Source of the DNA: Planctomycetota bacterium
Lineage (GTDB): Bacteria; Planctomycetota; Planctomycetia; Pirellulales; PLA5
Assembly: GCA_003576845.1 (NCBI GenBank)
Contig: QEVJ01000001.1
Coordinates: 156,537-201,561 of the forward strand
Direction of reading: 5' to 3'
DNA: 45,025 nucleotides
Shown here: positions 555 through 43,841 of the stretch, in pieces
Position numbering within the stretch: the stretch's first letter is position 1
Layout: the number at the start of each line of letters is the position of its first letter
The notes under the pieces: model-generated
Told to the model about the DNA's origin: nothing
Seen by the model: the letters and a program-made list of their open reading frames with translations, nothing else
The model's database searches: none
Translations under genes and position numbers: made by a program

Positions 555-2513
555 TCAAAAATCCGCGCCCGCGTTCTGCAAGAAATAGATCGCGCCGTCC
601 TCCGCCCCAAGAATCAGGTCGCGCCGTCCGTCGCCGTTCCAGTCGACCGTCGATGGACTCGTGTCGTGCGCAGCGAGATTGCGCTTGGCGAGCGGGCCCA
701 TGCTCTTGAGCACGGTTCGCCCATCGCCCTCGCCGACGTTTCGCAACCACTCGGCATTCGTGCCATTGAGCAGCACGTCGAGTCGCCCGTCGCCGTCCCA
801 ATCGGCGATGCACAGCTTGCGTCGGCCGCTCCGCCCCGCGCGCCCCGCGTTAAGTTGCAGCGGCTTGCCCGACTCGTCGACGAACGCGCGCACGCCCGGC
901 AAAAGTCGCAGCATGCCCTCCTCGCCCCGCCGCCGCGCAAAGAGCGCGAGAAACCCTTCGTGGTCGAGCATCACGAGGTCCGGCAGCGCATCGCCGTTGA
1001 AATCCACAACCGCCGGCGTCGTTCGCCACTGCGTAACCAGCTCCTTGCCCTGCGGGTTCCACCAATTCCACTCCGGCTTCGGCGTCGCACCGGGCCATTC
1101 GACTTCCACGGGCCGCGCCGCGAGCAATTTTGCCGCCGCGCGCGTTCCCGCGTTCTCGTACCACACCACTTTGCCCCAGATCGAGTTGACGACGAGGTCC
1201 GGCAAGCCATCCACGTTCCAATCCGCCACGCTCAGCGTCGTGTAGCCCCATTTCGCCTCGCACGGCCCTTGCACCGACCCATTCTCGCCCGCTTGAATCC
1301 GAATCGTCTCGCCATCGGCCGAGAGCTTTCGCGGCGCGGCCCATCGCGGCAGCCCGCCGTCGCCCGGCCCGAGATTCTCGAACCATTCGACGTATCCCGC
1401 CGTGTTTCCGCTCACGATGTCTTCGTCGCCGTCGCCGTCCCAATCAAAGCCGACCGGCGTCGCCAGCGCGCCGCACTTGAGCCGGTCCGCCTCTTGCCGA
1501 GAGTAAACCGGCGGCAAGAAGTTCGGCACGCCCGCAACGACGCGCCCCGTGTGCTCGACCAGCGCCACGCGGCCGTCTTCGTCGCCGACGATCAAATCCA
1601 CGTCGCCGTCACCGTCCCAGTCGATCGGCGTCGGCACGATCATCTGCAAGTCCATCGCAATCGGCTTGCCCTCGTGCACAAGCCGCCGGCCCGCCGCATA
1701 TTTCGCGCCCCGCCGCGTGCCGACGTTCTGGAAATACGTGAACTTGTCCAAAAACTCGCCGCAGACGATATCGAGATCGCCGTCGCCGTCGAAATCCGCC
1801 ACGCACGGCGACGGCCAACCGTAGACCTCCAGCGGCCCGTCTGCCGCGTCGATCCGCGTCGCTTGCTCGTACCGCGGCGCGTCGTTCGTGCCTGCGTTCC
1901 GTGCCACGTACAACTTCCCGCGCAACGGCCCGCGTTTCCACTTGCCGCGCTCGTCGTACGCGCCTTCCCAACCCGTGTCGAAGTACCCGAAGTCGGTCCA
2001 ATCGTCGAAGCCGATGAGCACGTCGAGCTTCCCGTCGCCGTCGAAGTCGACGTAATGCCACATGTTGCCGCGAATCTTCCGCCCTTCGAGCACGCCGCCG
2101 GGAACGTCAAGCGCCTTCTGCTCGGCGAAGTGCTTCGAGCGAAACTCGACGAATTCCTCCCCCGGCACGAGCACGCGCGGCACGCCCCCGACGTGCGACA
2201 CGCGAATGTTCTGATACCCCCGCCCGATCCGCACGCCCGGCTTGAATACCGGCATCTTCCCACCGCCCGGATTCTCGAAAAAGTAAGTCCCGTTCGACGG
2301 CTTGTCCGGACACGACACGACGAGATCGAGATCGCCATCCCCGTCAAAGTCCATCGGCAGCGGCCACGCCCACAACCCCATGCCCAAATCGACCACCAAA
2401 CCAGGATTGTTGTACCGAAGCGGCTCCAAGTCCGCGTCAGCGGCGCGTACGCATGTGCCTAGCATCGCCACGCAAGCACTCGCCACACTAGCCATTGCCA
2501 TGAGACGACTCAT
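555..2513 (-). CDS. Secreted FG-GAP/VCBS repeat propeller protein
   Basis: A 652-residue exported protein that probably folds as a calcium-binding beta-propeller. Residues 1-25 are a signal peptide ending near CVRA-AD. About nine repeats follow, each with a D-x-D/N-x-D-G-x-x-D-calcium loop such as DFDGDGDLD (near residue 55), DFDGDGKLD, DWDGDGDVD, DWNVDGLPD and DWNGDGRRD close to the C-terminus. Such repeats mediate extracellular binding and are very abundant in planctomycetes; the ligand is unknown. The start at 2513 is chosen because a GGGGAG site lies just upstream and the signal peptide begins there. The same frame stays open upstream to 4034, but that part is antisense-frame shadow of the MFS gene and is Arg/Gly-rich. 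The gene lies 47 nt behind the MFS gene on the same strand, so the two may be co-transcribed. Confidence 0.9.
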   Translation of the reverse strand: MSRLMAMASVASACVAMLGTCVRAADADLEPLRYNNPGLVVDLGMGLWAWPLPMDFDGDGDLDLVVSCPDKPSNGTYFFENPGGGKMPVFKPGVRIGRGYQNIRVSHVGGVPRVLVPGEEFVEFRSKHFAEQKALDVPGGVLEGRKIRGNMWHYVDFDGDGKLDVLIGFDDWTDFGYFDTGWEGAYDERGKWKRGPLRGKLYVARNAGTNDAPRYEQATRIDAADGPLEVYGWPSPCVADFDGDGDLDIVCGEFLDKFTYFQNVGTRRGAKYAAGRRLVHEGKPIAMDLQMIVPTPIDWDGDGDVDLIVGDEDGRVALVEHTGRVVAGVPNFLPPVYSRQEADRLKCGALATPVGFDWDGDGDEDIVSGNTAGYVEWFENLGPGDGGLPRWAAPRKLSADGETIRIQAGENGSVQGPCEAKWGYTTLSVADWNVDGLPDLVVNSIWGKVVWYENAGTRAAAKLLAARPVEVEWPGATPKPEWNWWNPQGKELVTQWRTTPAVVDFNGDALPDLVMLDHEGFLALFARRRGEEGMLRLLPGVRAFVDESGKPLQLNAGRAGRSGRRKLCIADWDGDGRLDVLLNGTNAEWLRNVGEGDGRTVLKSMGPLAKRNLAAHDTSPSTVDWNGDGRRDLILGAEDGAIYFLQNAGADF

Positions 2514-2523
2514 TCCGCATCTC

Positions 2524-2558
2524 CCCGAATCCCGACCCCCGAATCCCGACCCCCGCGC
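2524..2558. repeat. Heptanucleotide repeat patch A
   Basis: Five units of 7 nt follow each other: CCCGAAT, CCCGACC, CCCGAAT, CCCGACC, CCCGCGC. The patch fills the short gap between the MFS stop and the propeller-gene start. It belongs to a set of four heptad patches in the window. Confidence 0.7.
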
Positions 2559-2560
2559 CC

Positions 2561-3943
2561 TTATTCCTCCCCGCCCAGCTTCCCATACCGCCGCAACTCC
2601 GGCCAAATCACCGCCGCAATCACCGCCACGACGATCGTCCCGATCCCGCCGCTCACCACCGAAAACACCGGTCCCAATAGCTTCGCCACCACGCCCGCCT
2701 CGACGTCGCCCAGTTCGTTCGACATCGCAATGAACATGCCGTTGATTGCCGACACCCGCCCCCGCATCGCGTCCGGCGTCAGCACCTGCACCAGCGTATG
2801 CCGCACGATCACGCTCACGTTGTCGGTCACGCCCATCAAGAACATCATGGCCAGCGACAAAGCAAACGACGTCGAAAAGCCAAACGCAATCGTCGCCGCT
2901 CCGAAGATGATCACCGAGACGAGCATCGCCCGCCCCGCGTTCTCCATCGGCGGCCGATGGGCAACGACGATCGCCGTCGCCAGCGCCCCGATCGCCGGCG
3001 CCGCCCGCAACCAACCTAATCCCTGCGGTCCGACCTCCAGAATATCCTTCGCATAGATCGGCAACAGCGCGTTCGCTCCGCCCAACAGCACCGCGAACAT
3101 GTCGAGCAGGATCGCCCCATACATCACGCGCTTCCGCCGCAAGAATCCATAGCCCGCCACGAGCGAACCCCACGAGAACGGCTCGATCTGCCGCGGCGCG
3201 TCCGTCCGCGGAATCGTGAGCAGCAGCGCGACGAACGTAATGCCCGCCGCCGCGTTGAGCGCGTAGATCAAGAACGCGCCGCCCGCCGCCGCGATCAACA
3301 ACCCCGCCACGGCCGGCCCGATCACCGTCGCGAATTGAAACCCGCTCGTCATCCACGTCACGGCGTTGGGAAACATCAGCCTCGGCACGAGCGTCGGCAT
3401 GTACGACGCTTTCGACGGCTGTTGAAACGCCCGTCCCGCGCCGTTGAGCACCAACAGCCCATACAACAACCCGATGTCGCGCCACAACAGCGAATTGACC
3501 GCCATCAGCGCCGAAGCCAGCGTTACCGTCGACACGGCAACGCATATCACCCGCCGCCGACTGAACCGGTCCGCTACCTGGCCCGCCACCAGCGTCAGGC
3601 ACAACACGGGCACGATCTGAGCCAGCGCCACCATCGCCAGCGACAGCGCATCGCCCGTCACCTCGTAAACTTCCCAACCCACCGCCGTCGCCTGCATCTG
3701 CATGCCGACCAGCGACAGAATGTTGCCGAAGAAGTATTTGCGAAACGCCGCAATCCGCAGCGGCCCATACGCATCGTGCTTGAGCGCCGCCCCCAACGCG
3801 GTCACTTCGCCGGCCGAAGCCCCCGCAGAACCCGCAGTCTCTCCCGCCGAAACCGGGCCCGACGGCGGTGCATACGGCGGAAAAACCGAGGAATCGAGCG
3901 GCGCCTCCGGCGATTGATAGGGGTTTTCGGGCTCGGCATCCAT
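2561..3943 (-). CDS. Major facilitator superfamily transporter with NPYQSP N-terminus
   Basis: A 460-residue inner-membrane protein with about 12 hydrophobic segments, resembling the MFS_3/EntS-like exporter group. After a Pro/Gly/Ser-rich cytoplasmic N-tail of ~65 residues comes FRKYFFGNILSLVG, then the MFS loop signature AGQVADRFSRRR between segments 2 and 3, and a central loop with IPRTDAPRQ. The substrate cannot be told. The start MDAEPENPYQSP is preferred over an upstream alternative at 3979 because NPYQSP is a recurrent extreme N-terminal motif of planctomycete membrane proteins and occurs again at 4555. The divergent neighbour is the MazG-like gene. Confidence 0.88.
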   Translation of the reverse strand: MDAEPENPYQSPEAPLDSSVFPPYAPPSGPVSAGETAGSAGASAGEVTALGAALKHDAYGPLRIAAFRKYFFGNILSLVGMQMQATAVGWEVYEVTGDALSLAMVALAQIVPVLCLTLVAGQVADRFSRRRVICVAVSTVTLASALMAVNSLLWRDIGLLYGLLVLNGAGRAFQQPSKASYMPTLVPRLMFPNAVTWMTSGFQFATVIGPAVAGLLIAAAGGAFLIYALNAAAGITFVALLLTIPRTDAPRQIEPFSWGSLVAGYGFLRRKRVMYGAILLDMFAVLLGGANALLPIYAKDILEVGPQGLGWLRAAPAIGALATAIVVAHRPPMENAGRAMLVSVIIFGAATIAFGFSTSFALSLAMMFLMGVTDNVSVIVRHTLVQVLTPDAMRGRVSAINGMFIAMSNELGDVEAGVVAKLLGPVFSVVSGGIGTIVVAVIAAVIWPELRRYGKLGGEE

Positions 3944-4011
3944 GCCGCGATAGTAGTCTCCGCGCGCCGCCCTTGCCAAGGCCCGCCGCTTGGCCCCGCC
4001 CCGTCCTGACG

Positions 4012-4074
4012 AACCCCCGACCCACGTTCACCATTCACAACCCGCCATTTACCATTCACAATTCGCATTGTCCC
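4012..4074. repeat. Heptanucleotide repeat patch B
   Basis: Degenerate 7-nt units run in phase from 4012: AACCCCC, GACCCAC, GTTCACC, ATTCACA, ACCCGCC, ATTTACC, ATTCACA, ATTCGCA, TTGTCCC. The unit ATTCACA recurs exactly 21 nt apart. It lies in the divergent region between the MFS gene and the MazG-like gene. Confidence 0.65.
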
Positions 4075-5022: not shown

Positions 5023-5053
5023 ACGAAACATGTCCCTGGCGCCGCCCAATGCC

Positions 5054-5118
5054 GTAGGTCAGGCCAAGCGGCCACCGACTTCGCCATTGTCACACGACGC
5101 AATCCGCGCCGGCCTGAC
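5054..5118. repeat. GTCAGGCC/GGCCTGAC element 1
   Basis: GTAGGTCAGGCCAAGCGG (5054-5071) pairs at its core with GGCCTGAC (5111-5118), giving an 8-bp perfect inverted repeat around 44 nt. It sits between convergent genes (ends at 5022 and 5150). The same left end recurs at 43760 and the right end CGCGCCGGCCTGAC recurs at 16207. Confidence 0.7.
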
Positions 5119-5149
5119 ACGCTGCGTCTACTAAACGACGACTCAACGC

Positions 5150-8299: not shown

Positions 8300-8436
8300 C
8301 AACGCCCCGGCGATGCACGAGCGCGAGATTCCGTGCCCCGAATTCCCCGCGCCGCGGACGAGTACGGAATTTGATTGACTTCGAGCCACCCGTCTGCTAA
8401 GTTGGCACGCATCACCAGCCAGAGGTGCAGGCGTGT

Positions 8437-8899
8437 ATGAACAATCCCCCGCGACTCCCGTCTCTCTCTCTCTCGGCATGAGCCGGGCGACGAACTGCTC
8501 GCCGCCGACACCTACGAGGCCGTCCGCGTAGTACGCCGCGGCGAGTGGGTGCTGAAATTCCTGCGACCGCACGATTCTTTTGACGGCGAAACCGCGGCCG
8601 ACCGGCTGCGGCAACTGCGGCTACGGGCGCGGGAAAGCCGCCGGCACGCGGAATTGAACCCGCTCTGGTTCGACGAACGGACGAACTGCGTCGCCTCACG
8701 GTTCGTGGACGGTCCCTGGGCCAGCACGCGGCAGGCGACCGCGCTCTTGCGGCAGACGATCGCCTCCGGCCGGGGCTATCTCTTGGACCTCGCCCCGCAA
8801 AACCTGCGGCAAACGGCGACGGGACTCGTGGCCATCGACTTCGCCATCGACGAACAGCACGCCGATTGGTTGACAGAAACTTCGTCCCGTTGTTCATAA
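8437..8899 (+). CDS. Small protein-kinase-like protein, start out of frame across a (TC)7 tract
   Basis: ATG at 8437 has a ribosome-binding site (AGAGGTG, 8421-8427), but its frame hits TGA at 8479-8481 after 14 codons. The clearly protein-like frame, shifted, is open from 8441 to a stop at 8897. It reads EPGDELLAADTYEAVRVV, then VLKFL (Lys codon at 8555, like the kinase beta-3 lysine), later DLAPQN (8786, like the catalytic loop D-x-x-x-x-N) and AIDF (8833, like the metal-binding Asp). Adding one TC unit (7 to 8), or losing two, joins the ATG to this frame and gives a ~154-residue product. Kinase-like fold is inference: the protein is only about half usual kinase length. Alternatives are an internal GTG start at 8549 or a sequencing error. 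Confidence 0.6.
8461..8474. repeat. (TC)7 dinucleotide tract
   Basis: Seven uninterrupted TC units lie between a good start codon and the frame of the kinase-like gene. The tract length decides whether the ATG at 8437 is in frame. Confidence 0.9.
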
Positions 8900-8912
8900 T
8901 GGAGAACATTCC

Positions 8913-9227
8913 ATGCCCTTGTTGTACGATACGGATACTTTCAGCGCGCTCGATCTTACGGGTGCAGGCGCCGTCGTGTTCACGCACACGATGGCGGCGA
9001 CTGGCCGCATCGGCGTTTCGCTCGTCATGACGGGATTTAACGGCCAGGCGGCCACGATCACGATGAAGATCGCGACGCTGGACGGCTCAGACAACGTCTA
9101 CGGGAGCGTCGTAGAGACGACGGCAAAGGTGACGGGCGACACACGGCTGCGATTTGAGGCCGAGCGGGCGATCTTGATTCCCAGCGGATACAAGGTGCAG
9201 GTCACGGTAGGATCGAGGATTAAATAA
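8913..9227 (+). CDS. Small beta-rich protein, possibly phage-structural
   Basis: A 104-residue protein with a GGAG ribosome-binding site before ATG 8913. There is no signal peptide. The sequence alternates short hydrophobic and polar stretches (VVFTHTMAATGRIGVSLVMTG, then ITMKIATLDGSD), as in beta-sandwich proteins, and ends VQVTVGSRIK. It starts 13 nt after the kinase-like gene and precedes the tail-fibre-like gene in the same reading frame, separated only by its TAA (9225-9227). A virion- or appendage-related role is inferred from context alone. Confidence 0.65.
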   Translation: MPLLYDTDTFSALDLTGAGAVVFTHTMAATGRIGVSLVMTGFNGQAATITMKIATLDGSDNVYGSVVETTAKVTGDTRLRFEAERAILIPSGYKVQVTVGSRIK

Positions 9228-9308
9228 CCTCCCAGATTAGGACGCCGTATTTGCTGGACATTCCGTGCTAGCATCGGCGAAGGTGGGAGGTTATTTAGTC
9301 CTCGATCC
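9210..9308. repeat. 25-bp inverted repeat around a gene junction
   Basis: Arms 9210-9234 and 9284-9308 are reverse complements over 25 bp with one mismatch (T at 9220 against C on the other side), around a 49-nt loop. The left arm covers the last codons and stop of the preceding gene. The right arm contains GGGAGG (9285-9290), the only good ribosome-binding-like motif before the tail-fibre-like gene. In RNA the stem would hide that motif. Confidence 0.85.
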
Positions 9309-9356
9309 GTACTCAGCACTGGGTCGAACAACACGTCGATCGGCGGATCGTGGTAT

Positions 9357-11135
9357 TTGTTCAATCCGAATTGCGTGATCCTCGACAATGCCGATCACGG
9401 CGGGGCCACGGCCACGCTGCAACTCGAACACATGTTGGTGAGCAACAGTTTGTCGATCAACGACTTGGGCATGGCCACGGTCTACGTCGAGCAGACCGTC
9501 GACGTCGATGGCCAAGTCACGTTCGAGGAGAGCATCACGGCCAACGGCGTGATTTCCGCGTCGGCCTTCGGCGGCAATCTCTCGGGCAGCGTCGGCTCGC
9601 TCGGCACGCAGGCCAAGGCCGACGTCAAGGCGGAGGCGGAAGCGGCCTTGCAGACGTACGGTCTCGACCACCTCATCGCCTCGGCCGTCGAAACGAACTT
9701 CGCCACCACCGTGCACCTCGACTCGGTGATCGGGCACCTGGCCGATACCGGCACGTCGGCCACGTTCGACCGCACGACCGACAGCCTCGAAGCACAGCGA
9801 AACAATCTCGGCACGGCCGGCGCGGCACTCTCGAACGTGTCGGCCAACGTCGTTCAGTTTGGCGGAACGAACGGTTCCTTCGACGGCGGCCGGCCTGCGG
9901 TGAATACGACGTACATTGCTGGCAGTGTCGTCAACACCGGGCAAGCGCAGTTGGGCGTCAATTTGGTCAACGCCGGCGGCGCGGCGATTTCCGCATCGGG
10001 CAGCGTGATGGCGGTGAATACGACGCAACTGGGCGGCTCCGCCGTACAGCAGGACAGCGGGTACATCAAAGTCAGCCAGGGTGTTACGCAGGGCCAGTTG
10101 GACCTGACAAACGGGCGGATCGGCGTCGATTGGGCCAAGGTGAGCAACCAGGGCAGCACCGTGGCGCTGTCCGGCACCACGATCAAGACGACCACCGACG
10201 TCGAAACCGATACGCAGGACATCCAGTCGAAGATCGGGACGCCGAGTGGCGCGAGCGTTTCGGCGGACATTGCGGCGATCAAGGGCGAGACGGCCGCGAT
10301 CCTCGACGACACGGGCACGAGCGGCGTAAAAGTGGCCTCCAACGGCCTGACTGGCGTCACGATTCCGGCGGTAACGCTCGCCAACGGAGCGCACGGCGGT
10401 TCTGCCGCCACGTTGACCGCGGAACGAATCATCGTCGCGTCGACGACTTCGAACGAACCTGCCGTAAAGCTCACGGGCAACGGCAGCGGCGCGGGACTCG
10501 CCGCCAGTGGCGGAGCGTCCGGCAACGGAGCGACTTTGCAGGGCGGCGCCAGCGGCGGGGCGGGTCTGCGGGCGGTGGGCCAGGCCGGCGTTGGAATCAG
10601 TGCGTCCGGCGGCGGTTCGGCGAACCCCGGAATCTCCGCGAACGGCGGGACGAATGCCGCGGGAATTGCCGCGCTCGGCGGTTCCGGAACCGGGCACGGC
10701 ATTGCCGCGGCGACGATCGGAAGCGGACACGGAATCTACGCCATTGGCGGATCAGCGGGAAATGGCGCGATGTTCCAGGGTAGCACGACCGGCTCTGGCA
10801 TGGCCCTTGTCGGTGGAACGACCGGTTCGGGACTCGCCATCGCAGGCGGAAGCACGAGCGGCGACGGTGTCTCGGTCGGCGTAACCGACGGTGATGCGGT
10901 AAGTGCGAATGTCGTTGAGCAAGTGTGGACCGGCGCGGCGCTGCCGGAGGCGTATGCGGCGCAAGGAGCGGAAGGGACGCCGGCGCAACTGCTGTACATG
11001 CTCCTGTCGGCCGTGTCAGAGTTTGAAATCGTTAGCGATGAAATCCGATGCAAGGATCTCGGTGGGACGACGCAGGTAATGAAGTTTATTCTCAACTCCG
11101 CAACGAATCCCACATCGCGATCCCGAGATACATAG
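9357..11135 (+). CDS. Glycine-rich phage-tail-fibre-like protein
   Basis: A ~592-residue protein. Residues ~370-515 are low-complexity, with 10-14-residue units of the type GSGxGLxAxGG, GHGIYAIGGS and GSGLAIAGGS, as in fibrous stalks of phage tail fibres. The C-terminal ~70 residues (TPAQLLYMLLSAVSEF, then IRCKDLGGTTQVMKF and a NPTSR end) have the look of a conserved C-terminal domain of phage or prophage structural proteins; this is recognition from memory, not a search. There is no signal peptide or anchor. The start is uncertain: TTG at 9357 has no ribosome-binding site, the frame is open from 9228, and GGGAGG lies at 9285-9290 inside an inverted repeat. Translation sounds protein-like from about 9312. 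The next gene follows 43 nt later. Confidence 0.72.
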   Translation: MFNPNCVILDNADHGGATATLQLEHMLVSNSLSINDLGMATVYVEQTVDVDGQVTFEESITANGVISASAFGGNLSGSVGSLGTQAKADVKAEAEAALQTYGLDHLIASAVETNFATTVHLDSVIGHLADTGTSATFDRTTDSLEAQRNNLGTAGAALSNVSANVVQFGGTNGSFDGGRPAVNTTYIAGSVVNTGQAQLGVNLVNAGGAAISASGSVMAVNTTQLGGSAVQQDSGYIKVSQGVTQGQLDLTNGRIGVDWAKVSNQGSTVALSGTTIKTTTDVETDTQDIQSKIGTPSGASVSADIAAIKGETAAILDDTGTSGVKVASNGLTGVTIPAVTLANGAHGGSAATLTAERIIVASTTSNEPAVKLTGNGSGAGLAASGGASGNGATLQGGASGGAGLRAVGQAGVGISASGGGSANPGISANGGTNAAGIAALGGSGTGHGIAAATIGSGHGIYAIGGSAGNGAMFQGSTTGSGMALVGGTTGSGLAIAGGSTSGDGVSVGVTDGDAVSANVVEQVWTGAALPEAYAAQGAEGTPAQLLYMLLSAVSEFEIVSDEIRCKDLGGTTQVMKFILNSATNPTSRSRDT

Positions 11136-27326: not shown

Positions 27327-30249
27327 TCACCTCACCACAAAAAACACCAGCGGCCCCCGCACCACCTGCTCCTTCACGATCTGCTTCCCCGCCAATTGCC
27401 CCGCGATCTTCTCGTCCGCCTTCGCCGCCGCGAGCATCGTCGCCATTCACCTGCACGGGCACCTCGATCGAATCCTCCACGAGCGCCGCCTCGTCCCACG
27501 TCGGCCAAGGCTCGTAAGCGAGCGACTCGCGATGCCCGAGCGCCTCCCAAAGCTCCTCCGCAATGTGCGGCGCAAACGGCGACAAGAGCAGCACGAACGG
27601 CGCAAGCGCCGCCCGCGGCCGCCGATCCAGCTTCGTGAAGTAGTTCGTAAACTCCATCATCCGCGCGATCGCCGTGTTGAACCCCAGCCGGTCGATGTCC
27701 TCCGTCACCGCCTTGATCGTCTTGTGCAGCACGCGGTTCTGCTCCGCGGACAACGCATCGTCGCACACCGCCGCGCTCAGCCGCACGTCGTCCGCCCGGT
27801 CGTCGATAATCATCCGCCACGCGCGATCCAAAAACCCCCGCACGCCGCTCACCCCGTCCATGCTCCACGGCTTCGTCGCTTCCAGCGGCCCCATGAACAT
27901 TTCGTAGAGCCGCAGCGCGTCCGCCCCATACTCGCGCACCACCTGGTCGGGATTCACCACGTTCCCGCGGCTCTTCGACATCTTGAACGCCCGGCTTTCG
28001 AGTTGGATCGCCGCGTTCCCCTTGAGCACGAAGCCTTCGCCGTGCTTCTCGGCATTCGCTGGATCGATCTTCACGGCCTCGACCGCCTGACCGTCCGCCT
28101 TCCGCACCGGCGTATTGTCTTCCCCAAACTTCACCTCCCGTGCGCTCACCCACGCCCCCGCCGCGTCGCGATACCCCGTCATCTCCACTTCGCCCAGAAT
28201 CATCCCCTGATTCACGAGCTTCGCGAACGGCTCCGGCGTCGTCACCACGCCCCGGTCGTAGAGCACCTTGTGCCAGAACCGCGAGTACAGCAAATGCAGC
28301 ACGGCATGCTCCGCCCCGCCGATATACAAATCGACCGGCATCCACGCCCGTTCGACCTCCGGATCGACCATCCGCTCCGCATTCTCGTTGTCGAGGTAGC
28401 GCAGATAGTACCAACACGACCCGGCCCATTGCGGCATCGTGTTCGTCTCCCGCTTGTAACGCTTACCGTCGATCACCGGATACAGCCATTCCTCCGGCGA
28501 CTTGTCGAGCGGCGGCTCCGGTCGCCCGTGCGGCTTGTAGTCGTCCAGGTGCGGCAGATTAACCGGCAGATCGCGCTCCTCGACCGCCCGCACCAGTCCC
28601 GTCTTGTTCCCCGCCGCGTCGAGCTCGTGCAGAATCGGAAACGGCTCGCCCCAGAACCGCTGCCGGCTGAACAACCAATCGCGCAGCTTGTAATTCACCG
28701 CCTCTCGCCCGAGTCCCTGCGTCGCCAGGTCGGCGGTGATCTTCTTCTTGAACGCCGGCGTCACTTCCCCTTCGTAACCCGGCGAGTTGATCGCCACGCC
28801 GTTGCCGGTGAACACCTCCCTGCCCGCAAGCACCGCATTGCGATCGACGTCCGCTTCCAACCCTGGATCGACCACGGCGACGATCGGAATGTCGTACTGC
28901 ACGGCGAACTCGTAATCCCGCTCGTCGTGCCCCGGCACCGCCATGATCGCCCCGGTCCCATAACTCATCAGCACGTAGTCCGCAATCCAAATCGGCACCG
29001 GCTTCCCATTCACCGGGTTGATCGCATACGCGCCCGTGAACACGCCCGTCTTCGCCTTCGCCAACTCCGTCCGGTCGAGATCGCTTTTCGCCGCCGCCCG
29101 TTGGCGATACGCCTCGACGCTTTCCCGCCGCGCAGCAGGCGTCAGCCGATCCACCAGCGGATGCTCCGGCGCAATCACCATGTACGTCGCCCCGAACAAC
29201 GTGTCCGGCCGCGTCGTGTAAATCCGCAGCACGTCCTCGCCCGGCTTCTTCGGATAACGCGACTTCGCCCGCGCCGCCTTCCACGCCACGAAGGCCGCCT
29301 CGCTCGGCTTTCGATCGTGCGAAGCCCTGACGTCACGTGGGGTGCCACTGGTGGCTTGTCCACCAGTGCTGAGCCCCGAACCGACGTCAATCGGCAAATC
29401 TGCACTGGTGGGCGAGCCACCAGTGCCACCCTCGCCGATGTAAAAATCGACCTCCGCCCCCGTGCTCCGCCCGATCCAGTTCCGCTGCAACAGCTTCACG
29501 CTTTCCGGCCAATCGAGCGCGTCCAAATCCCGCTCGAGCCGATCCGCGTATGCCGTGATCCGCAGCATCCACTGCCTTAGCGGCCGCCGCTCGACCGGAT
29601 GCCCGCCCCGCTCGCTCTTCCCGTCGACGACTTCCTCGTTCGCCAGCACCGTGCCCAGCGCGGGACACCAGTTCACCGGTGCCTCGCTCTGATACGCCAG
29701 CCGATGCTCGTCCTGATACCGCCGCACGGCCGCGTCGCCCGCCGCTTTCACCTCGGCCGGAATCGGCAACTCCACAATCGGCCGCCCGCGCTGCAACGCC
29801 TCGTCGAACCACGTGTCGTAAATCTGCAAGAAAATCCACTGCGTCCACCGCACGTACTCGACGTCCGTCGTCGCCAACTCCCGGCTCCAGTCGTAGCTGA
29901 AGCCGAGCATCTTGAGCTGCCGCCGAAAGTTGGCGACGTTCCGCTCCGTCGATTCGCGCGGCGGCGTGTTCGTCCGGATCGCGTGTTCCTCGGCCGGCAG
30001 CCCGAACGCATCGAACCCCATCGGGTGCATCACGCTCCGACCCCGCATCCGCGCCGCCCGGCAGATGATGTCCGTCGCCGTATACCCTTCGGGATGCCCG
30101 ACGTGCAACCCGTCGCCGCTCGGATACGGAAACATGTCGAGCACGTACAGCTTCTCCCCCGAAGGCAGCCGCGGCGAACGGAACGTCTCGTGCTCCTCCC
30201 AATACGCCTGCCACTTCTTCTCAATCGTCGCCGGGTTGTATCGAGGCAT
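27327..30249 (-). CDS. leuS: Leucyl-tRNA synthetase, C-terminal domain damaged by a frame-changing deletion
   Basis: A class I synthetase charging tRNA-Leu. HVGH is at 49-52 and KMSKS at 756-760; the CP1 editing domain shows [13 protein letters not shown] and [19 protein letters not shown]. Start [10 protein letters not shown] at 30249 is preferred to TTG 30261. Residues ~273-305 are encoded by a palindromic repeat element. After VQVNG (934-936) the frame changes at about 27443-27444. The expected C-terminal end ([17 protein letters not shown], then [13 protein letters not shown] and TGA at 27327) is in another frame, and about 14 residues found in other LeuRS between VNG and this point are missing. 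The original frame runs on to 27148 as Gly/Arg-rich sequence. The C-terminal domain contacts the tRNA, so function may be impaired unless the sequence is wrong here. Confidence 0.85.
29337..29431. repeat. Palindromic element pair inside leuS
   Basis: Two 23-nt hairpins with arms CACTGGTGG and CCACCAGTG lie at 29346-29368 (loop CTTGT) and 29403-29425 (loop GCGAG). The second is the reverse complement of the form with loop CTCGC found at 35904. Both keep the leuS frame open and encode a Gly/Ser/Thr-rich insert between EVDFYIG and the editing domain. Confidence 0.88.
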
Positions 30250-35819: not shown

Positions 35820-35827
35820 CGCGAATA

Positions 35828-35950
35828 CGCCGGGTGGCACTGGTGGCTTGTCCACCAGTGAGAGCTGCCAACGAACTTAGTTTAGTGAATAACCGCCGGG
35901 TGGCACTGGTGGCTCGCCCACCAGTGAGAGCCGCCGACGAACCTAGTTTA
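35828..35950. repeat. Two direct copies of the palindromic element between rplP and rpmC
   Basis: Units of 57 nt lie at 35828-35884 and 35894-35950 (period 66), differing at about six positions, all transitions. Each contains a hairpin with arms CACTGGTGG and CCACCAGTG: 35838-35860 with loop CTTGT and 35904-35926 with loop CTCGC. Hairpin cores match those inside leuS. Confidence 0.9.
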
Positions 35951-35975
35951 ATGTTAGATCGGGACATCAACGGCC

Positions 35976-43749: not shown

Positions 43750-43759
43750 CTGTCCCGTC

Positions 43760-43823
43760 GTAGGTCAGGCCAAGCGGCGCAGAACTCTCCAATGCCATTG
43801 GACTCAACCCGCGCTGGCCTGAC
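43760..43823. repeat. GTCAGGCC/GGCCTGAC element 3
   Basis: GTAGGTCAGGCCAAGCGG (43760-43777) matches element 1 over 18 bp, and GGCCTGAC (43816-43823) forms the inverted partner of GTCAGGCC (43765-43772). It lies between the convergent genes map and the cation-efflux gene. Confidence 0.75.
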
Positions 43824-43841
43824 GCGGAGCGGCGAGAACCG

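What the first reader, a model, noticed from the sequence alone, without database searches (positions are those of the whole stretch)
8437..8899. Kinase-like gene controlled by a (TC)7 tract: possible phase-variable switch
A start codon with a good ribosome-binding site (ATG 8437) reads into a stop after 14 codons, while the kinase-like frame begins just past seven TC units. One more TC unit, or two fewer, joins the two into a ~154-residue protein. Dinucleotide tracts in 5' coding parts are classic slipped-strand switches. The protein shows a beta-3-like Lys, a DLAPQN loop and an IDF motif, so a kinase-like protein could be switched on and off ahead of the tail-fibre and PEP-CTERM genes.
Basis: partly seen in the sequence, partly recalled or inferred. 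Interest (0 to 1): 0.7.

Follow-up and report, generated by a model that had tools for sequence, protein, structure and literature searches.

The report
Phage-type mini-kinase with TC-repeat start
A planctomycete gene for an unusually small kinase-like protein of phage origin sits just behind the genome's only seven-unit TC repeat, and the present repeat length cuts the gene off from its start codons; this may be a reversible on/off switch, but no varying repeat length has been seen.

Summary
(TC)7 lies at 8461-8474; the ATG 8437 frame stops after 14 codons, and the kinase-like frame (8441-8899) has no upstream start. One unit more, or two fewer, joins ATG 8437. A paralogue in the same genome (contig C135, 89% identical) shows that the frame is a real gene (dN 0.05, dS 0.30). 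It carries (CT)7, lacks the ATG (AGG), and also has no in-frame start. These are the only two 14-nt TC/CT tracts found in the 7.05 Mb genome. The kinase idea holds: the protein is a divergent member of an apparently undescribed ~110-150-residue family, with 9 matches in this genome, 30 (many broken) in its genus mate, one in a temperate phage contig, almost none elsewhere. Canonical members match Pfam APH, keep DLxPxN and D, and fold as a minimal kinase (pLDDT 82; OspG, NleH, Ark1, Rio2). Many follow a tail-fibre-like gene. Phase switching fits the anatomy but is not shown: tract-length polymorphism could not be tested, the paralogue has a stop that slippage cannot mend, and many family copies are decaying. 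Phase-variable mini-kinase: 0.42; recently broken copy: 0.32.

The parts
8375..8403 (+). candidate promoter TTGACT-17 nt-TAAGTT
   Evidence: sequence; conserved in the C135 paralogue; not listed by the consensus scan, so weak
8422..8427 (+). Shine-Dalgarno-like GAGGTG
   Evidence: sequence, identical in the paralogue
8433..8435 (+). GTG start candidate, 7 nt after GAGG; joins the kinase frame at n=6 or 9
   Evidence: followed by TAG in the paralogue
8437..8439 (+).
8461..8474 (+). (TC)7 tract, the only one in the genome
8441..8899 (+). kinase-like reading frame, 152 codons plus stop, without an upstream start at n=7
   Evidence: (dN/dS 0.18 against the paralogue)
8549..8551 (+). GTG, the only canonical in-frame start near the 5' end; use of it would remove the strands before the conserved Lys
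8555..8557 (+). candidate beta-3 Lys codon (VLKF), aligned with the family Lys
8786..8803 (+). catalytic loop DLAPQN (family DLxPxN)
8837..8839 (+). Asp codon of the IDF motif (DFG position)
8368..8906 (+). block shared with C135:17588-18130 (89%), from the promoter-like site to the SD of the next gene

Best explanation
The frame 8441-8899 encodes a divergent member of a small family of phage-derived minimal kinases, probably transcribed from its own promoter. The (TC)7 tract lies between two staggered start codons (GTG 8433, ATG 8437) and the kinase domain. Gain or loss of one TC unit by slipped-strand mispairing would join the domain to one start or the other, so two of the three tract phases would be ON and the assembled n=7 is the OFF phase. 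Shown: the frame is a selected gene, the family and its fold, the unique tract and the frame arithmetic. Inferred: that the tract length varies, that these starts are used, and that the protein phosphorylates something.
For: The only two 14-nt TC/CT tracts found in the genome sit at this gene and its paralogue (expected 0.02 and 0.01). Purifying selection on the frame: dN 0.052, dS 0.296; 26 of 42 changes in third position, p=1.4e-4. Both alternative phases of the window copy give a start behind GAGGTG. A profile of the canonical family, built without the window, ranks the window and C135 frames first among 779 ORFs and 2000 shuffles, E about 1e-5. Family members match Pfam APH (best E 4.9e-5, 7 of 15). 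AlphaFold of a family member gives pLDDT 82, and the leading PDB matches are kinases.
Against: No tract-length variation was seen: there is one assembly and no reads or sister strains at hand. The paralogue at (CT)7 also has no in-frame start, and its GTG is followed by TAG, which slippage cannot mend. Many family copies in the genus mate are truncated or hold stops, so decay is common. Codon-position bias is clear only downstream of GTG 8549 (7,3,20 against 1,5,6).
Confidence: 0.42

Rival explanations
1. A recently broken copy. The gene began at GTG 8433 (or its equivalent) and was functional until a tract-length change in the window copy and a GTG-TAG nonsense change in the C135 copy disabled them separately. 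The tract is just a microsatellite that made the lesion likely.
For: Both copies lack an in-frame start, by different lesions. The family in the genus mate has many truncated or stop-holding copies. The dN/dS value is compatible with recent loss.
Against: The domain itself has no stop in either copy over 139 codons. The tract kept seven units in both copies although flanking bases changed, and it is unique in the genome.
Confidence: 0.32
2. The protein is made constitutively from a start inside the kinase frame downstream of the tract (GTG 8549 or a non-canonical codon), so the tract is 5' untranslated sequence.
For: GTG 8549 is the only canonical start in this frame shared by both copies. Third-position bias is significant only downstream of it: 7,3,20.
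Against: GTG 8549 would remove the strands before the conserved Lys, which the other family members have. The 23 codons upstream have no stop and resemble the family motif, weakly (p=0.01 window, 0.07 paralogue). No Shine-Dalgarno-like site before it in the paralogue.
Confidence: 0.18
3. The tract length in the assembly is wrong, or is a majority call of a mixed population, and the gene is simply in frame.
For: The genome is a draft in 289 contigs; a unit miscount would give an intact gene.
Against: A 14-nt tract is well within short-read length (general knowledge), and the paralogue independently shows seven units.
Confidence: 0.06

Closest known systems
Helicobacter pylori oipA CT-repeat phase variation (PMC10564699)
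   Same: CT/TC dinucleotide tract in the 5' region; unit changes shift the frame and turn the gene on or off
   Different: No length variation observed here; here two staggered starts could serve two of three phases; the gene is a kinase-like protein of a planctomycete, not an outer-membrane protein
Minimal bacterial effector kinases OspG and NleH (PDB 4q5h, 4lrj)
   Same: Shortened kinase fold of similar extent; best VIA-align matches, Z 9.8 and 9.5
   Different: Only 12-13% identity; the present family is shorter still and phage-linked; substrate unknown
Ark1 RNA kinase (PDB 8yv4)
   Same: Best Foldseek match in the PDB, small kinase fold (E 1.3e-3)
   Different: 15% identity; no evidence for an RNA substrate
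APH phosphotransferase family, Pfam PF01636
   Same: Catalytic-loop region matched in a relative (residues 102-127); 7 of 15 members match, best E 4.9e-5
   Different: The window protein itself has no hit; most of the APH C-lobe is missing

Membership tests
Phage-linked mini-kinase family (defined here) | Profile match to canonical members built without the window | tested here: met
   E about 1e-5, first of 779 ORFs plus 2000 shuffles
Phage-linked mini-kinase family (defined here) | Conserved DLxPxN and the Asp of D-F | tested here: met
   invariant D, L, P, N and nearly invariant Asp in A4, window included
Phage-linked mini-kinase family (defined here) | Directly downstream of the ~300-residue fibre-like gene | tested here: not met
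   found at many canonical copies and in phage L123, not at the window copy; a context trait, not a sequence criterion
Protein-kinase-like fold | Predicted kinase fold | tested here: met
   for a family member, pLDDT 82, leading PDB matches are kinases; the window protein alone gave no usable model (pLDDT 37)
Protein-kinase-like fold | Phosphotransfer activity | not testable with these tools
   needs an assay
Pfam APH PF01636 | Score above the gathering threshold | tested here: not met
   0 hits for the window protein; one relative scored 13.5 bits against the cut-off 23.2
Slipped-strand phase-variable gene | Repeat tract whose unit changes shift the frame between start and gene body | tested here: met
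   phase table
Slipped-strand phase-variable gene | Tract-length variation within or between strains | not testable with these tools
   one assembly only; no reads; no orthologous copy found elsewhere
Slipped-strand phase-variable gene | ON-phase copies with an intact frame from the same start | tested here: inconclusive
   the only other copy with the tract, C135, is also without a start; a single copy is a weak test

The most novel reading that the evidence does not exclude
A phage-derived family of exceptionally small kinase-fold proteins, linked to tail-fibre genes and expanded in one planctomycete genus, of which one branch has left the phage context, gained its own promoter and come under a TC-tract switch with two staggered start codons.
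Probability: 0.3. Interest if true: 0.72.

Novelty: new variant of a known kind. Interest (0 to 1): 0.52.

Why it matters
Kinase folds of about 110-130 residues lie near the lower size limit and would show what the core of the fold can do without. A kinase-like gene tied to phage tail fibres suggests modification of the virion or of the host surface. A few literature searches turned up no dinucleotide phase switch in planctomycetes, and read data could test this one directly.

Tried and rejected
Direct searches with the window protein or its paralogue in phages, plasmids, IMG/VR, genome contigs, Pfam, PHROGs and PDB sequences found nothing; the family came only from weak hits of the paralogue in the genus mate. 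Other weak hits in that list (L046, L047, L025, L028, L044, L045, L048) lack the DLxPxN pattern and were dropped. Folding the window protein alone failed. Antisense coding of the block: rejected, since the one antisense frame open in both copies has dN above dS. A programmed +1 frameshift at CCCCC from the ATG frame would fit the window but not the paralogue, so I rejected it as a shared mechanism (inference). Window neighbours 6.4-19 kb do not match the family's phage tail genes, and three of them have no match in phage records.

Full report
Observation. The sequence shows (TC)7 at 8461-8474, ATG 8437 with a 14-codon frame, and a kinase-like frame open from 8441 to 8899. I computed which start is joined at each unit number: n=5 or 8 gives ATG 8437, n=6 or 9 gives GTG 8433, n=7 or 10 gives none. 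GAGG 8422-8425 is 7 nt from this GTG and 11 nt from the ATG.

Is it more than chance? The whole genome (G000, 7.05 Mb, 289 contigs) has the 14-mer (TC)7 once, here, on either strand, and (CT)7 once, which fits the paralogue described next. First-order Markov models of pooled own sequence expect 0.02 and 0.01; higher orders less.

The paralogue. C135:17588-18130 matches 8368-8906 at 89%, from a promoter-like TTGACT-17-TAAGTT through leader, tract and gene to the SD of the next gene; the flanks differ. The consensus promoter scan does not list this site, so it is only a proposal. Between the copies the kinase frame has dN 0.052 and dS 0.296, with 26 of 42 changes at third positions (p=1.4e-4). 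The frame has therefore been translated and selected. The signal is clear downstream of GTG 8549 (7,3,20) but not in the 23 codons before it (1,5,6), so the exact start stays open. In the paralogue the ATG is AGG, the equivalent of GTG 8433 is followed by TAG, and at (CT)7 no start is in frame either.

What the protein is. Direct searches found no relatives, but weak hits in the genus mate G001 carried the same catalytic pattern. G001 contigs match MAG OFTM264, Planctomycetota. Extending from these revealed a family with a consensus like GGESRDIWRLGPVCVKRW...NRMWYVPWLHWTVARWVVGEPATHEACNRLLARFPGLRDLHPGNVVVGRRGVVVVDFGV: nine matches in G000 and thirty in G001, many truncated or with stops, some as tandem pairs in one frame. 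Samples of class, order and phylum gave nothing convincing outside this genus, a genome-contig scan gave only the OFTM264 MAG, and IMG/VR gave one temperate phage contig with tape measure, integrase and ParB genes. A profile made without the window finds the window and C135 frames at E about 1e-5, above all decoys; the matched part runs from the helix after the Lys to the IDF motif. Canonical pairs also show purifying selection, for example dN 0.09-0.12 against dS 0.78-0.94.

Kinase character. Seven of fifteen members match Pfam APH, best E 4.9e-5; the window protein itself does not. The DLxPxN residues are invariant and the DF Asp nearly so. AlphaFold of a canonical member with a 14-row alignment reaches pLDDT 82. 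Foldseek and VIA-align lists are led by kinases such as Ark1, OspG, NleH and Rio2, and by phage and giant-virus kinases in BFVD. No Foldseek PDB E-value is below 1e-3, so the case rests on the fold lists, the motif and Pfam together.

Context. In the phage and at many canonical loci of both genomes the gene follows, in several cases with overlap, a conserved ~300-residue tail-fibre-like gene. The name fibre-like is from position after the tape measure gene and is inferred; PHROGs has no match for it. The window copy lacks this neighbour and seems to be a derived stand-alone branch with its own promoter.

Mechanism. The most likely reading is a slipped-strand switch in which two of three tract phases connect a start to the kinase; it would work like the CT-repeat control of H. 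pylori oipA (PMC10564699). Against it stand the lack of any observed length variation, the nonsense codon in the paralogue, and the frequent decay in this family. I put switching at 0.42, a recently broken copy at 0.32, tract-independent initiation at 0.18 and an assembly miscount at 0.06.

Noticed in passing
9209-9314; L020 14917-15021: A ~100-bp inverted repeat (arms with AATAACCTCCCA/TGGGAGGTTATT) just after the 104-codon gene, with an 84% identical copy on contig C135: a possible MITE-like or terminator repeat family.
   Followed up: no
29340-29431; 35823-35953; L021 13103-13193: A second dispersed ~65-92 bp palindromic repeat family with several copies in and near the window.
   Followed up: no
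5053-5121; 43759-43826; L020 7940-8018: A third ~70-bp repeat present twice in the window and once on C135.
   Followed up: no
L063 853-1833; L064; L066: Tandem fusions of two mini-kinase domains in one reading frame, the first with DLNPSN and the second with DLHPGN, in both genomes of the genus.
   Followed up: partly
window 9357-11135: A 592-residue low-complexity, phage-structural-looking protein without matches in PHROGs, Pfam or phage records.
   Followed up: partly
window 558-4034 (- strand): Long protein with FG-GAP repeats (PF13517, five stretches, E 9.5e-32).
   Followed up: no
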